Shown: positions 17,637 through 51,473 of the stretch, piece by piece
How the letters are laid out: every line of letters begins with the position of its first letter
Position numbering within the stretch: position 1 is the stretch's first letter
DNA from: Candidatus Nitrosocaldus sp.
Lineage (GTDB): Archaea > Thermoproteota > Nitrososphaeria > Nitrososphaerales > Nitrosocaldaceae
Direction: 5' to 3'
Length of the DNA stretch: 64,000 nucleotides
Assembly: GCA_025054855.1 (NCBI GenBank)
Contig: JANWZS010000009.1
Span: 1-64,000 of the forward strand
Made by a program: the position numbers and the translations under genes
The notes under the pieces: model-generated
What the model was told of the DNA's origin: nothing
Seen by the model: only the letters and a program-made list of their open reading frames with translations
Databases searched by the model: none

Positions 17637-17673
17637 GGCAATATTTTTATAAATTTATTACGTAATTAATTAT

Positions 17674-18555
17674 ATGGAGTTCTGGCTACTCACTGGTAAG
17701 CCTGAACATTGGGAGATAGGTTTACAACATAATAAATGGGGTCTTACTGAAAAGTTTAAGAATGTATGGCAAAGAGTGTCAAACGGCAATATACTATTTC
17801 TATATGCAACAAGACCAGTGAAAGGTATTATTGGTATAGCGCGAGTTCAAAGTAAATTAGAAGAATATACAACTATATGGCCAGAAGGTGTATGGCCTTA
17901 TAGATTTGTATACTCTAATGTATACATTTTACCAACGGATAAATGGGAACATGATGCTGTGAATATACTTCCAATAGTGAATGGATTGCTTCAAAACGGA
18001 ATAAGCAATCTAAGAAGAGAATTAGTAGAGAAGATACTAAGCGAAATAACTAAAAAATGGAAAACCAATTTCTCTATTCAATATTTTTCTTCACGAAACG
18101 AATATGATCTGGTTACTCCTAGCACAAACAATATTACTGCTTTAACCAATATTCCTACTTTGAATGAACATGATAAAGTTAAACAAATGTTATTAGAAAT
18201 GGGACACCTTGAAGGATTTACCGTTAATGAAGAGTACTCTATTACTAACACGAGGGAAAGAATTGATGTGGTATGGCGAAAAACATCTGCAAGCGTTCCT
18301 TCGCATGCATTCGAAGTACATATCGGAGGCAATCTACACCAGGCTATGAGTAAACTCAAACATGCAAATGAACTATGGAATAGTAGAATATACGTAGTAA
18401 GTAGGGAAGAGAATCTTTCAATGATAAGCACGTTACTAAATGGAGCCTTCTATGAGATAAAAGGAAAATTGCGTATATTGACCGTGGACAAGATTGAAAA
18501 GTTTTATAAATTACAGAAAGAATATCATAAATGTAAAGAGGAAATAGGCATATAA
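17674..18555 (+). CDS. EVE-domain protein fused to a PD-(D/E)xK-like nuclease, candidate modification-dependent restriction enzyme
   Basis: 293 residues, distinctly A/T-rich with codons (AGA, TTA, AAA) unlike its AGG-rich neighbours, which suggests recent transfer. Residues 1-125 resemble an EVE (PUA/ASCH-like) domain: MEFWLLTGKPEHWEIG, WGLTEKFKNVWQRVSNGN, LFLYATRPVKGIIGIARV and the Trp-rich WPEGVWPYRFVY. EVE domains bind modified bases. Residues 165-293 look like a restriction-endonuclease-like fold: RERIDVVW with D198, then HAFEVHIGGNLHQAMSKLKH with E214 and a conserved-looking GGN, then RIYVVSREEN. The usual lysine position seems to be H216. TATA TTTATAAATT (about 17648-17657) fits a leaderless ATG. 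It has no methylase neighbour. The fusion suggests a type IV-like enzyme, by inference. Confidence 0.72.
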   Translation: MEFWLLTGKPEHWEIGLQHNKWGLTEKFKNVWQRVSNGNILFLYATRPVKGIIGIARVQSKLEEYTTIWPEGVWPYRFVYSNVYILPTDKWEHDAVNILPIVNGLLQNGISNLRRELVEKILSEITKKWKTNFSIQYFSSRNEYDLVTPSTNNITALTNIPTLNEHDKVKQMLLEMGHLEGFTVNEEYSITNTRERIDVVWRKTSASVPSHAFEVHIGGNLHQAMSKLKHANELWNSRIYVVSREENLSMISTLLNGAFYEIKGKLRILTVDKIEKFYKLQKEYHKCKEEIGI

Positions 18556-18562
18556 AATATAA

Positions 18563-20340: not shown

Positions 20341-21363
20341 ATGACTGATCTGGAGTATCTGAAGCAGGAGATAACAAGGCTGAAGAGGGAGAGGGATGCC
20401 GTGATACTTGCACACAACTACCAGCTGCCCGAGGTCCAGGATGTTGCAGATTTCATAGGTGACTCTCTAGCACTATCACAGCATGCAGCAAGGACTGATG
20501 CAAAGGCGATAGTGTTCTGTGGTGTGCACTTCATGGCAGAGACCGCTTCCATAATATGCCCTGATAAGAGGGTTCTGATACCAGACCCAGAGGCTGGATG
20601 CTCCCTAGCCTCTACAATAACAGTTGAGCAGTTGAGGGCATGGAAGCAGGAGCATCCAGATGCGGTCACAGTATGCTACATAAACACGAGTGCGGACGTG
20701 AAGGCAGAGTGCGACTACTGCTGCACATCCAGCAATGCAGTTAAGGTCGTGAAGAGCATACCAGAGGATAAACCCATACTATTCCTCCCAGATATGTTCC
20801 TTGGTGCTTATGTTGCAGAGGTTACGAAGAGAAAGAACATCTACATATGGCCTGGGGAGTGCCATGTGCATGCTGGGATAAGGCCTTCTCTAGTGCTGGA
20901 GATGCTCAAGACGTACAGGGATGCTGAGTTCCTGATCCATCCAGAGTGCGGGTGCACAACCTCGATGGTCTACTACTTTGGCAGCGGTAACGGTAATGGG
21001 AGTGGGAACGGTAATGGCTGTGCACTTACCAGCAACGGTAATGGTAATGGAAATGGAAATGGAAACTATGCATGCAACGTAAGGTTCCTCTCTACCGAGG
21101 GGATGATGAGGTATGCCAAGCAGACCAGTGCAAAGAGGCTCATCGTTGCTACGGAGGTTGGGATACTCTACAGGATGCAGAGGGAGAACCCTGACAAGGA
21201 GTTCATACCCGTAAGTAGTGATGCTGTATGCAAGTACATGAAGATGATCACACTCGATAAGGTATACAGATCCCTCAAGGAGATGGTCTATGAGGTCAAG
21301 GTCCCAGAGGATACAGCAAGGAGGGCAAGGAAGGCTATAGAGAGGATGCTGTCCATACAGTGA
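20341..21363 (+). CDS. nadA: Quinolinate synthase (NadA) with a Gly-Asn repeat insertion
   Basis: 340 residues. The [4Fe-4S] enzyme condenses iminoaspartate with dihydroxyacetone phosphate to quinolinate. Cluster cysteines fit C87 (PEAGCSLA), C174 (WPGECHVH) and C297 (SDAVCKYMKMITL). LAHNYQLPEVQDVADFIGDS is the usual N-terminal signature. HPECGCTTSMVYYF is followed by an unusual insert at residues 213-245 made of Gly-Ser-Asn units (GSGNGNGSGNGNG and SNGNGNGNGNGN). The normal sequence then resumes with VRFLSTEGMMRYAK. The insert makes it longer than typical archaeal NadA (about 300 residues). The DNA is a GGTAAT/GGAAAT repeat. TATA ACTTAAATATAATC (about 20305-20318) lies ahead. Confidence 0.96.
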   Translation: MTDLEYLKQEITRLKRERDAVILAHNYQLPEVQDVADFIGDSLALSQHAARTDAKAIVFCGVHFMAETASIICPDKRVLIPDPEAGCSLASTITVEQLRAWKQEHPDAVTVCYINTSADVKAECDYCCTSSNAVKVVKSIPEDKPILFLPDMFLGAYVAEVTKRKNIYIWPGECHVHAGIRPSLVLEMLKTYRDAEFLIHPECGCTTSMVYYFGSGNGNGSGNGNGCALTSNGNGNGNGNGNYACNVRFLSTEGMMRYAKQTSAKRLIVATEVGILYRMQRENPDKEFIPVSSDAVCKYMKMITLDKVYRSLKEMVYEVKVPEDTARRARKAIERMLSIQ

Positions 21364-22503: not shown

Positions 22504-23082
22504 CTACTTCGCCTCCTCGACCTTTGCCCTCTGCTGCTCAGCCTTCCTGACATCCTCCCTTATCCACTCCTCTGCACCAAGGAATGGCTGCCTGCACGTT
22601 ATACCTATCTTGCCCATGGTGCCTCCTTTGAGGCTCACAGCGGTTATCCTTGCCCTGACCGTTGAGCCTATCCTGAGCACCCTGTTGCTCTTACTTGCTA
22701 CTATCATGCCTTGCTTCACATCCACGTTGAGAAAGTCATCTATTATCTGTGAGAGATGGAGTAGGGCATCCGTAGGCCCTATCCTCACGAACGCACCAAA
22801 CTCAGTCACCTCAACCACCTCACCCTCTACTATCTCCTGCAGGTTTGGATAGAAGGTGAGCATGCTGAACCTGGTCTTGTGATATGTTGAGCCATCACCG
22901 TGCACCACCTTACCTACTGGGTTAACATCCGCATCTATTATCATTATGACATAGCCCAACTCCGTGCTTATCATGCTCTCATACTTCTCCTTGAGTATGG
23001 CTAGGGCAGCATCCTTGAGGTTGGTGTTGAACCTGTTCGGTGGTATCCTGACAACATCCACCATCTCTACAATAGCAAACAT
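22504..23082 (-). CDS. rpoE1: DNA-directed RNA polymerase subunit E' (Rpo7)
   Basis: 192 residues. The archaeal Rpb7 homologue forms the polymerase stalk with Rpo4 and contacts emerging RNA. The N-terminal domain runs from MFAIVEMVDVVRIPPNRF to GYVIMIIDADVNPVGKVVHG. The S1 domain is visible as GEVVEVTEFGAFVRIGPTDA, followed by LLHLSQI and IGITCRQPFLGAEEWI. Start ATG 23082 is set by comparison with family N-termini (MFxxVEVxDVVRIPP). The frame is open upstream to 23163 but that part is not family-like. A Glu/Lys-rich tail of about 15 residues ends the protein. It is upstream of spt4 in the same operon. Confidence 0.95.
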   Translation of the reverse strand: MFAIVEMVDVVRIPPNRFNTNLKDAALAILKEKYESMISTELGYVIMIIDADVNPVGKVVHGDGSTYHKTRFSMLTFYPNLQEIVEGEVVEVTEFGAFVRIGPTDALLHLSQIIDDFLNVDVKQGMIVASKSNRVLRIGSTVRARITAVSLKGGTMGKIGITCRQPFLGAEEWIREDVRKAEQQRAKVEEAK

Positions 23083-23206
23083 TCCAGATACTATCTTGCT
23101 GATACCCTTATGAACCTTTTGATTCCCTCCATCACCTATATACTGGCAGAGGCTCATGGGCATGTAGTGAACTTAGATATATATAGGTTCTTCACTACCA
23201 TTATTA

Positions 23207-23944
23207 ATGAAGAACAGAGATGGATATATGAATCGCAAGGGTTTTACCATTGCAGTAATTGCAATTGCTACAATTATACCTACGGTGATAGGTGTTACGC
23301 TCATAGCAGCATCAGATAGATCCACAGTGACAACAGGCAGTATGTCTCATGCATACTCTCCCCTACCAACGGCCAAGAGCGAGGAATATGTACCCCCTCA
23401 AGAGGCTGATGGTATAAGGATAGATCTCAGTGTGAGAGGAGGAGAGGTAATAGATGATCCTACGTACGGACGAATGGTGGCAGTTAAAACAGGTGATGTA
23501 GTGTATATAGTTGTTAGTCTGACCAATGTGAGCGATAGAGTTAAGGCGTATGATGGTTCGTTTAATTATGTCTATAATGTATTTGATGTTAATGGTATAA
23601 GTAGATTAAACATACGCACTAATGTATTACTTGCGCCAGACAAGCCTATAGTTATCAATCCTAAAGAAAGTTTTACATTCGAGATACCATGGGGTACAGA
23701 AATAGACCCTCTAGCGGATGCTCCCCAAGAAGTCATAGAAGAGATACTCACAAAAGGTCTACCGTATCCAACTGGTGAATCAGCGTCCCCAGGAGTATAT
23801 ACTATACGTGTAACAACTGCTACTGCCTTTGATTATGATGTAGTGCAAAAGATAAAGGTAGATCTACCTCTATCTTCAGAAGAGATAAGTCAATTTCAAG
23901 GCAGAAAGCGTATAGCAGATGAGATAATGGTGAGAGTAATATGA
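23207..23944 (+). CDS. Secreted or membrane-anchored protein of unknown function
   Basis: 245 residues. An N-terminal hydrophobic segment, FTIAVIAIATIIPTVIGVTL (about 13-32), is a signal or anchor, preceded by basic residues. The rest (about 60-240) is beta-rich with Ig-like spacing: GDVVYIVVSLTNVSDRV, IVINPKESFTFEIPW, GVYTIRVTTATAF. The region is A/T-rich relative to neighbours. TATA GATATATATAGG (about 23173-23184) lies about 25 bases ahead of the start. The stop codon overlaps the start of the metalloprotease gene (ATGA at 23941-23944), so the two are translationally coupled. The function is not recognised, but coupling to a secreted protease suggests a chaperone, inhibitor or co-exported partner. 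Confidence 0.75.
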   Translation: MKNRDGYMNRKGFTIAVIAIATIIPTVIGVTLIAASDRSTVTTGSMSHAYSPLPTAKSEEYVPPQEADGIRIDLSVRGGEVIDDPTYGRMVAVKTGDVVYIVVSLTNVSDRVKAYDGSFNYVYNVFDVNGISRLNIRTNVLLAPDKPIVINPKESFTFEIPWGTEIDPLADAPQEVIEEILTKGLPYPTGESASPGVYTIRVTTATAFDYDVVQKIKVDLPLSSEEISQFQGRKRIADEIMVRVI

Positions 23945-25602
23945 GAAGTTCTATGAAAAGGATAACAAATGTAGCATTTTTACTACCATTAATTATTAAT
24001 CTAATCATTCAAGATACTTATGCCCAAGTTGCTACTCCGCTTTACTCACATATTAGTGATGATGGCAGACAAACATACTGGAATATCTCTCCTAGCAGCA
24101 TGATATCCTACCTGATACATGAGAGTGGTACACCAGACGTAAGTGGCACTACCGAGTTCTCAGCAGTACAAGAATCATTCCAGAAATGGGAGAGTGATGT
24201 TGCCTCATACATAGACTTCGGATATGCTGGGACCACAAACCGCCCTGCAAGCTTACTAGAAAGCGAATCTAATAGGCTAGATTGTGTTAACGTTGTAAAA
24301 TGGGTTAACTACAACATAGGATTTATGAGTGCTCTAGCGCTTGCTTCAAATAGCACTAGATATACTAATAGCAATATAATAACAGAATTTGATATTGCAT
24401 TCAACGATTATCATGATTGGGCTAGATGGTGTATAAACGGTGCAAGCAGTAGTGATGGGTGTATTACTGGAGAATATGATATACCTTCAGTTGCACTACA
24501 TGAAGTAGGGCATGTACTATTTCTGGAAGACCTTTATCCTATTGCTGTTGATCTCGATTCTGATCCTTACAATGATGTCAATAAGAAACAAGTAATGTAT
24601 TATTCTTTTCAAGATGCTACTCAAGATATTAGACAATCACTAAACTATGGCGACAGGGCTGGTGTTAGATACATATATGCAAATACCAACACAGCTGGCT
24701 CTAGCGTTGGCGAGACTCAAGGTGCAGATATAGCTGCAGGGGCAGTTAATGATGGAAGTACGGTGGATTATGTACTAGCATGGGCAGATAACCCTGTTGG
24801 AGCAAACTCTATAAGGTACAGGTATGGATGGGATGTAAGCTCTTCCACTGGCGTGCCATCATCTTGGAGCACTGATTACTCTATAACAGGAATAGGTGAT
24901 GAGACGCAAGGAGTCGGTGTAAATCTAATAAATCTGGATAGCAACTCTAGGCTAGATCTTATAATAGCATGGATAGACAACCCAGTAGGTAACAATACCA
25001 TAAAGTACAGGATAGGCTGGAATATAGATACATCTGGAGTCCCAGCAAGTTGGAGTAGTACAAAGACGGTACCAAGCTCGGATGTAGGAAATGAAAGTCA
25101 AGAGTTGGCTATAACACTTTCCAATATAGATAGCAACTCTAGGCCGGAGATGTTCGTATTCTGGGTAGATAACCCATCTGGAGCAAACAAGATATACTAC
25201 AAGATAGGATGGAATGTGAATACTTCGGGGGATGCATCTTCATGGAGTAGCAGGATAGATACTGGAATACAGCCAGGGGATGAGACTCGGGTTAGGAGCT
25301 AGAATAGCAATTCTTAATGATATAGGCTCTAGCTCTGTAAGAGATGTTCTAGTATTCTGGATAGATAACCCAGTAGGTAACAACAAAGGATACTATGTTG
25401 TAGGGGCAGACATTAATAGCAGTGGGTATCCATCATGGGGTTCAAGGAAGGAGATACCCAACTACTTCAGGGGTGTAGGGGATGAGACACAAGGCGCTGG
25501 AGTAGTTATAAGGAGTATAGGTAATAGTGATAGTAGAGTAGTAGGGTAGAGGCGGTCTTCATGTGGATCGATAATCCTGCTGGTGATAACTACGCTAGAT
25601 AA
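23941..25602 (+). pseudogene. Secreted matrixin-like metalloprotease with beta repeats, broken by frameshifts
   Basis: The first frame codes 453 residues. A signal peptide (ITNVAFLLPLIINLIIQ) leads it. A zinc protease domain of matrixin type follows with ALHEVGHVLFLEDL: H187, E188, H191 and, in the place of the third histidine, D197. Family members have Gly where F194 stands. From residue 260, repeats of about 70 residues contain DNPVGxNxIxYxxGW and SWS and GDETQG. Near 25287 the frame ends (GDETRVRS), yet the repeat continues in another frame from about 25280 (RLGLGARIAILND, VLVFWIDNPVGNNK). A second break near 25548 shifts to VEAVFMWIDNPAGDNYAR, ending at 25602. At least two lesions or errors are needed to explain this. 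Confidence 0.75.
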
Positions 25603-50395: not shown

Positions 50396-51473
50396 ATGAA
50401 AGAGATGGTATATGCTGTGATCTCCGCTGCTTCTGCTCATATCATCATACACAAGCACTGATATGGTTGGAGCATCCACATCCTTCAATGGTACTGGTGG
50501 AGAAGGTGTAGTAGTAGTAGCAGCAGAAGAAGAAGAGGAGAAGGTTGCATACGTTGAGGATGTACCATTGCTTGATGAGAAGGAATGGAGTGAACTTGAA
50601 TCTCTAGTCCTTAGCAACGATGGTGTTAAAGCGGTTATGCAGGGTAAACAGCACAGTCTATACTGAAGGCTTTGTTAGATACCTTGGTGATGATAAGCCT
50701 AAAGATGTTGAAGCAGACAAGTGGTATGCTAATAATGTAGTCTACATCTACCATGAGGGTAACGAGAAGTATCTATTATCTGCATTAACAGATTATATGG
50801 AGAAGAAGGTGGTTGATATACTTGTAGTCAAGCATCCATCACAAGAATTCAGATCATCACACAAATACTGATAGCGACTTTAATATTGCATCACATAATA
50901 GACCTGGTTTCTCCATTGCGTATTACAATGGTGGTGCAACAAACATATATTACTTTAGGATCAGTGCAAAGGCTCCAACCAGCTACACTGGGCAGATATC
51001 AGCGCATGAGAATTTGGACTTTCTTCTTAATGCAACTGCAAAGGGCTCACGGACTACTAATGAACAGCTCTGCAACAGATCAAATACAACGAACAGTTAC
51101 TGGGCACAGGTAGGCATGGTATGGCGTTATAATACTAAAAGTATTACATGGACTGATACTAGAGAGGATTGTGGACATAGATTTTATGAGTAACATAGGG
51201 AGATGGCAATAACTACTTATTTAGTATACATGCAACACGCTAAGGTTCAACATACACATGGTACATCTGTGCTATAAATACCACGGCTAGAGTACAGGAA
51301 TATCAAAAGAAACAATATAAGCCAGGGTACATTCCTGACCACCAACAAGCACTCAAGTGTCTGGTTAGAGAACTGGATGGTTGCAACTGACTGGTACACA
51401 TACTTTGGCTCGAATATTCAAGCTGGTAATGCTAAATACAAAAAAGTTGGAGACAGTACAGTGTATAACTGAG
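50396..51473 (+). pseudogene. Decayed secreted protein gene
   Basis: An ATG at 50396 with a signal-like start (KEMVYAVISAASAHIIIHK) and a TATA-like GATATATACTG (about 50366-50376). The reading sense moves among frames: VAYVEDVPLLDEKEWSELES, then TEGFVRYLGDDKPKDVEADK with YANNVVYIYHEGNEKYLLSA, then NRPGFSIAYYNGGATNIYYF with QISAHENLDFLLNATAKGS and TNSYWAQVGMVWRYNTKS, ending once at 51193. Afterwards another piece, SQGTFLTTNKHSSVWLENWM with VATDWYTYFGSNIQAGNAKY, stops at 51473. At least four breaks are present. The middle part resembles an extracellular beta protein. No family is recognised. Confidence 0.6.

What the first reader, a model, noticed from the sequence alone, without database searches (positions are those of the whole stretch)
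17674..18555. EVE domain fused to a PD-(D/E)xK-like nuclease in an AT-rich island
An N-terminal EVE-like reader domain and a C-terminal restriction-fold motif (D198, E214, GGN) in one protein, with foreign base composition, suggest a modification-dependent (type IV-like) restriction enzyme. The lysine position of the nuclease seems to be histidine. It may act alone, as no methylase is adjacent.
Basis: partly seen in the sequence, partly recalled or inferred. Interest (0 to 1): 0.65.

Follow-up and report, generated by a model that had tools for sequence, protein, structure and literature searches.

The report
EVE-reader nuclease, likely modified-DNA cutter
An ammonia-oxidising archaeon has picked up one foreign gene that joins a domain built to recognise chemically modified DNA bases to a restriction-enzyme-like cutting domain, so it probably destroys invading DNA with modified bases; this kind of enzyme was already predicted, but this nuclease branch has no family model of its own in the databases searched and no test of it was found.

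Summary
ORF 17674-18555(+) encodes 293 aa. Residues 1-130 are an EVE/PUA-like domain (Foldseek to PH1033, E=2.7e-9). Residues 163-293 form a separate domain with PD-(D/E)XK topology (AlphaFold pLDDT 96). In 54 full EVE fusions E187, D198, E214, K227, K229 and H230 never vary and residue 216 is Gln (50) or His (4): the missing lysine is a family trait, its role probably moved to the next helix. The gene (34% GC, window 50%) is a 926-bp insert between two convergent genes that lie directly adjacent in all five congeneric genomes. The same fusion occurs patchily in archaea and many bacterial phyla, mixed across domains in a tree; some copies lie beside DNA methylases and type II restriction genes or fragments. 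The nuclease domain is also joined to other N-terminal domains (Mrr_N, helix-turn-helix, zinc ribbon, DUF1802). Best reading: a stand-alone, modification-dependent (type IV-like) restriction enzyme. EVE-PD(D/E)XK enzymes were predicted by Bell et al. 2020 and an EVE-HNH enzyme is proven, so this is a new member of a known kind. Cleavage and target base are untested. Interest is moderate to low.

The parts
17674..18555 (+). EVE-nuclease fusion gene, 293 aa plus stop
   Evidence: homologous full-length fusions in at least 54 genomes
17674..18063 (+). EVE/PUA-like reader domain, residues 1-130; conserved G8, W4, W13, W22, G23, W32, W69, P75, R77
   Evidence: Foldseek PH1033 E=2.7e-9; profile to PH1033 5e-12; conservation
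18103..18159 (+). flexible linker, residues 144-162
   Evidence: pLDDT below 50
18160..18552 (+). PD-(D/E)XK-type nuclease domain, residues 163-293
   Evidence: AlphaFold pLDDT 96; fold matches mostly PD-(D/E)XK nucleases
18232..18363 (+). putative active site: E187 (18232-18234), D198 (18265-18267), E214 (18313-18315), H216 (18319-18321), K227-L-K229-H230 (18352-18363)
   Evidence: E187, D198, E214, K227, K229, H230 invariant in 54 EVE fusions; 216 is Q in 50, H in 4
17637..18562 (.). 926-bp low-GC single-gene insert between the stop codons of two convergent genes
   Evidence: the two flanking genes are directly adjacent in five congeneric genomes; GC 0.329
17646..17653 (+). TATA-like TTTATAAA about 24 bp before the ATG, inside the insert; possible own promoter
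   Evidence: direct reading of the sequence; function inferred

Best explanation
A stand-alone, modification-dependent (type IV-like) restriction endonuclease gained by horizontal transfer. Inferred mechanism: the N-terminal EVE domain flips a modified base (by analogy with VcaM4I most likely 5mC or 5hmC) out of incoming DNA into an aromatic pocket; the C-terminal PD-(D/E)XK-type domain, tethered by a flexible linker, cuts nearby using metal bound by D198 and E214 (perhaps with E187). H216 stands where the usual lysine sits, and its charge is probably supplied by K227 or K229 (with H230) on the following helix. The host is spared because its own DNA lacks the recognised mark. Shown here: fusion, predicted folds, conserved residues, insertion, distribution. 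Inferred: base recognition, cleavage, defence role.
For: EVE fold of the N-domain. PD-(D/E)XK-type fold of the C-domain with an invariant site in 54 EVE fusions. The nuclease domain also pairs with Mrr_N, helix-turn-helix-like, zinc-ribbon and DUF1802 N-termini. Patchy presence, archaea and bacteria mixed in the tree, recent single-gene gain. Neighbours of relatives include DNA methylases and type II restriction genes or fragments. No C5-cytosine methylase found in the host genome. Precedents: EVE-HNH VcaM4I cleaves 5mC/5hmC DNA (PMC7897488); EVE-PD(D/E)XK proteins are predicted type IV enzymes (PMC7641849).
Against: No biochemistry. Fold matches of the nuclease domain are weak by E-value (best 2e-3) and its profile finds no solved structure by sequence. 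The protein itself misses the Pfam EVE model. Some relatives sit next to methylase genes, which would also fit a type II system. In several Dehalococcoidia the gene keeps a fixed chromosomal place near a SecA-like gene.
Confidence: 0.7

Rival explanations
1. It is the restriction half of a type II-like restriction-modification pair: the protein cuts a specific sequence and a methylase encoded elsewhere protects the host.
For: Methylase genes directly upstream in some relatives (L085 overlapping, L081 at 0 bp); N6/N4-type methylase matches on other contigs of the host genome.
Against: No methylase next to the gene in the window and none in most relatives (21 of about 95 loci). The adjacent methylases are of varied kinds, some look like fragments, and other type II restriction genes or fragments lie there too, as in a mixed defence locus. 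The gene moved alone into this host.
Confidence: 0.12
2. An RNA-directed nuclease or toxin: the EVE domain reads a modified base in RNA or tRNA and the C-domain cuts it.
For: EVE and YTH domains of many cellular proteins bind RNA (PMC7641849); Foldseek places the N-domain close to YTH domains as well as EVE.
Against: The same nuclease domain is joined to Mrr_N and helix-turn-helix-like N-domains, which point to DNA; its fold neighbours are mostly DNA nucleases; restriction genes lie next to relatives.
Confidence: 0.1
3. A DNA repair nuclease that recognises damaged or deaminated bases, comparable in role to Vsr beside methylases.
For: A base-flipping type of reader; a fixed place near SecA-like and PolX-like genes in some Dehalococcoidia; methylase genes near some relatives.
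Against: Very patchy presence and recent gain by one species do not fit a core repair role.
Confidence: 0.05

Closest known systems
EVE-PD(D/E)XK predicted type IV restriction enzymes (Bell, Wolf, Koonin 2020, PMC7641849)
   Same: Same domain architecture and same proposed role; described there as a substantial variety of putative enzymes
   Different: Whether this nuclease branch, with (Q/H)216 and the KLKH helix motif, was in their set could not be checked; ammonia oxidisers and Dehalococcoidia are not named in the main text
VcaM4I, EVE-HNH modification-dependent endonuclease (PMC7897488)
   Same: N-terminal EVE reader followed by a linker and a C-terminal nuclease, similar size (about 309 aa)
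   Different: Nuclease is HNH there, PD-(D/E)XK-type here; VcaM4I is proven biochemically
SRA-type modification-dependent enzymes (MspJI, PvuRts1I/AbaSI)
   Same: A PUA-superfamily reader joined to a PD-(D/E)XK-type nuclease (reviewed in PMC12707154 and PMC11037411)
   Different: Reader is SRA or SRA-like, not EVE; no direct sequence comparison was made here
Mrr (Mrr_N plus Mrr catalytic domain)
   Same: One relative (L035) carries Mrr_N in front of this nuclease domain
   Different: P0001 has no Mrr_N and no Mrr catalytic hit
PD-(D/E)XK enzymes without the motif III lysine (BglII and NotI with Gln; YhgA-like and CoiA-like EXQ; DUF506 and DUF1626 with the basic residue on the next helix)
   Same: Same kind of active-site variation (PMC4081073, PMC1913061)
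   Different: No sequence relation to any solved structure was detected

Membership tests
EVE domain | PUA-like EVE fold and sequence similarity | tested here: met
   Foldseek PH1033 2.7e-9, profile 5e-12, 50 of 88 relatives hit PF01878; the protein alone misses PF01878
EVE domain | binding of a modified base in a pocket | not testable with these tools
   conserved aromatic residues only
[quoted passage not shown]
   fold matches (weak E-values)
PD-(D/E)XK superfamily | Asp on strand 2 and Glu on strand 3 | tested here: met
   D198 and E214 invariant in 88 proteins
PD-(D/E)XK superfamily | Lys two residues after the Glu | tested here: not met
   His here, Gln in most relatives; known exceptions exist (PMC4081073, PMC1913061); candidate replacements K227 and K229
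Type IV (modification-dependent) restriction enzyme | modified-base reader plus nuclease in one protein | tested here: met
   both folds predicted
Type IV (modification-dependent) restriction enzyme | no cognate methylase beside the gene | tested here: met
   none in the window around the gene; in relatives 21 of about 95 loci have a methylase nearby
Type IV (modification-dependent) restriction enzyme | cleaves only modified DNA | not testable with these tools
   needs an assay
EVE-HNH (VcaM4I type) | HNH nuclease domain | tested here: not met
   no HNH match in Pfam; PD-(D/E)XK-type fold
EVE-McrB | McrB GTPase domain | tested here: not met
   protein is only 293 aa, no such match
Mrr | Mrr_N and Mrr catalytic domain | tested here: not met
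   neither found in P0001; Mrr_N only in 2 of 88 relatives

The most novel reading that the evidence does not exclude
This nuclease domain, with its (Q/H)216 and K-L-K-H signature, defines an unnamed, modular family of single-gene restriction enzymes in which one conserved nuclease is recombined with different recognition domains (EVE variants, Mrr_N, helix-turn-helix, zinc ribbon, DUF1802). It has moved between archaea and bacteria and provides modification-dependent defence in ammonia-oxidising archaea.
Probability: 0.45. Interest if true: 0.5.

Novelty: new member of a known kind. Interest (0 to 1): 0.36.

Why it matters
It gives a defined, testable enzyme family for EVE-PD(D/E)XK restriction, which in the literature read here is only predicted, with an active site lacking the usual lysine. 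It is also a clean single-gene acquisition of a likely anti-virus enzyme by an ammonia-oxidising archaeon. Active relatives could serve as tools for mapping modified bases.

Tried and rejected
Pfam, NCBIfam and PADLOC have no model of the nuclease domain. A PADLOC type IV hit concerns only one relative, presumably L035, the Mrr_N protein. Weak Pfam hits to Aca2_YdiL and Oxidoreduct_C are below cut-off and were ignored. The single-protein scan of genome contigs found nothing; the alignment query found 73 loci. A core-gene role in Dehalococcoidia was considered because of the SecA neighbourhood, but only 6-7 of 196 genomes of that class have the full fusion. Phages: no match; plasmids: one partial match; viral contigs: two hits, broken in frame in the one read. 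Neighbour statistics rest on a crude longest-ORF gene call, and the background rate on 16 archaeal genomes, so the enrichment is indicative only. A structural superposition on VcaM4I was not possible, so pocket residues are not matched one to one.

Full report
1. Observation. The ORF 17674-18555(+) is real: 293 codons, ATG start. Its GC is 0.340 against 0.497 for the window, third-codon-position GC is 0.27 against 0.52-0.59 in four other window genes, and it is the lowest-GC 882-bp stretch in the 64 kb. The stretch between the flanking stop codons (17637-18562, 926 bp) holds only this gene. In all five other genomes of the genus the radical SAM gene and the convergent Endo_dU gene are neighbours, with 27-59 bp between the matched coordinates (names from Pfam). 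So this is a single-gene gain in one species, or less likely repeated loss. A TATA-like TTTATAAA lies about 24 bp before the ATG (direct reading; function inferred). The host carries archaeal AmoA, so it is an ammonia-oxidising archaeon.

2. N-domain. The protein alone misses Pfam EVE but hits the EVE protein PH1033 by phmmer (E=3e-5) and the NCBIfam model PRK00809 (6.5e-7, below its cut-off). The family profile hits PH1033 at 5e-12 and MJECL36 at 3e-10. The AlphaFold model (mean pLDDT 89; residues 144-162 disordered) matches PH1033 at E=2.7e-9, then YTH domains, ZmASCH and other EVE-type proteins. 50 of 88 relatives hit PF01878. In the 54 EVE fusions G8 is invariant and W4, W13, W22, G23, W32, W69, P75 and R77 nearly so. 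In VcaM4I, W22, W82 and Y130 are among the residues around the flipped 5mC/5hmC (PMC7897488). The two proteins were not aligned structurally, so the shared number W22 is a lead only.

3. Nuclease domain. Folded alone with 90 sequences it gives pLDDT 96 and pTM 0.89, in the order helix, three strands, helix, strand, helix, strand, helix. The best PDB fold matches are mostly PD-(D/E)XK nucleases: R2 endonuclease, BstEII, EcoT38I, 3ijm, BsoBI, Bax1, MUS81 (family membership of these from general knowledge). The E-values are weak (best 2e-3), so the assignment rests on topology, motif and the consistent identity of the hits. D198 and E214 are invariant in 88 relatives. In the 54 EVE fusions E187, D198, E214, K227, K229 and H230 never vary, and residue 216 is Q (50) or H (4). 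Loss of the motif III lysine with a basic residue on the next helix is described for other families (PMC1913061), and Gln at that place occurs in BglII and NotI (PMC4081073). That K227 or K229 does this here is inference.

4. Family. An alignment query found 73 loci in named genomes: Thermoproteota-type and other archaea, Chloroflexota (mainly Dehalococcoidia), Acidobacteria, Zixibacteria, Omnitrophota, Planctomycetota and more. In a phylum-wide sample 68 of 398 genomes match some part of the protein. Full-length fusions are rare: 2 of 250 genomes in the own class and 6-7 of 196 in the class around a Dehalococcoidia genome. A quick tree mixes archaea and bacteria with high support, for example Thermoplasmata with Zixibacteria, and a euryarchaeon among Stahlbacteria, WOR-3 and Zixibacteria. 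The query lies on a long branch near Caldarchaeum proteins (support 91), so its donor is unknown.

5. Modularity. The N-terminal regions of the relatives fall into EVE types (a main group plus three diverged groups; two of these align to it by hhalign at 95% and one at 98% probability) and unrelated types: Mrr_N, helix-turn-helix-like, zinc ribbon, DUF1802 and unassigned. One nuclease paired with exchangeable recognition domains fits a restriction enzyme.

6. Context. Of 141 neighbouring ORFs of EVE-type relatives, 8 match N6_N4_Mtase, 3 EcoO109I and 2 Tsp45I, and one matches TdeIII. Several of the restriction-enzyme hits look truncated. Against about 4 PF01555 stretches per genome in 16 archaeal genomes this looks enriched, but the background is rough. 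21 of about 95 loci have a methylase in the fetched flank. In 14 loci, nearly all Chloroflexota, a SecA-like ORF lies nearby, often with a PolX-like gene (named from their sequences, with HHH_8, DNA_pol_B_thumb and PHP hits among neighbours), which speaks for stable inheritance there. The host has no detectable C5-cytosine methylase (PF00145) but has N6/N4-type matches on other contigs; this fits a reader of modified cytosine without proving it.

7. Verdict. The best explanation is a stand-alone modification-dependent restriction enzyme (0.7). Type II pairing, RNA targeting and repair remain possible (0.12, 0.10, 0.05). Bell et al. 2020 already list EVE-PD(D/E)XK as putative type IV enzymes (PMC7641849, section 9), and VcaM4I shows that an EVE domain can guide restriction (PMC7897488). 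The kind is thus known; this branch is a new member. No paper found in the searches run here reports a test of an EVE-PD(D/E)XK enzyme; subscription papers were not searchable.

Noticed in passing
L061:6978-8135 (G004, same genus): A 386-aa protein with the same nuclease domain behind an unrelated N-terminus, shared with L063 and L137; no family for the N-terminus was found.
   Followed up: partly
L071, L072, L074, L076, L077, L089, L098, L100, L105 (directly downstream of the EVE-nuclease gene): A small ORF of 71-100 aa follows the EVE-nuclease gene at short distance in nine Dehalococcoidia/Chloroflexota loci; the two tested (L074, L071) have no Pfam match.
   Followed up: partly
L128, L116, L075, L108: Short ORFs matching only parts of Tsp45I, TdeIII or EcoO109I lie beside the EVE-nuclease gene, as if restriction genes decay at these sites.
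   Followed up: partly
L152 and L153 (IMG/VR contigs), about 4764-5377 in L152: The nuclease domain occurs on a viral contig of about 38 kb, split over two reading frames behind a different short N-terminus.
   Followed up: partly
window 20341-21363: The NadA (quinolinate synthase) protein contains a low-complexity Gly-Asn repeat insert (GNGNGSGNGNG...NGNGNGNGN).
   Followed up: no
window 23001-25000 and about 50450-50700: Two further low-GC stretches (about 0.38-0.40); the first covers a protein with a weak matrixin (Peptidase_M10) match.
   Followed up: no
L002:1501-1938 (G001, same genus): A separate EVE-like ORF of about 149 aa without the nuclease domain, 32% identical to the N-domain of this protein.
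   Followed up: no
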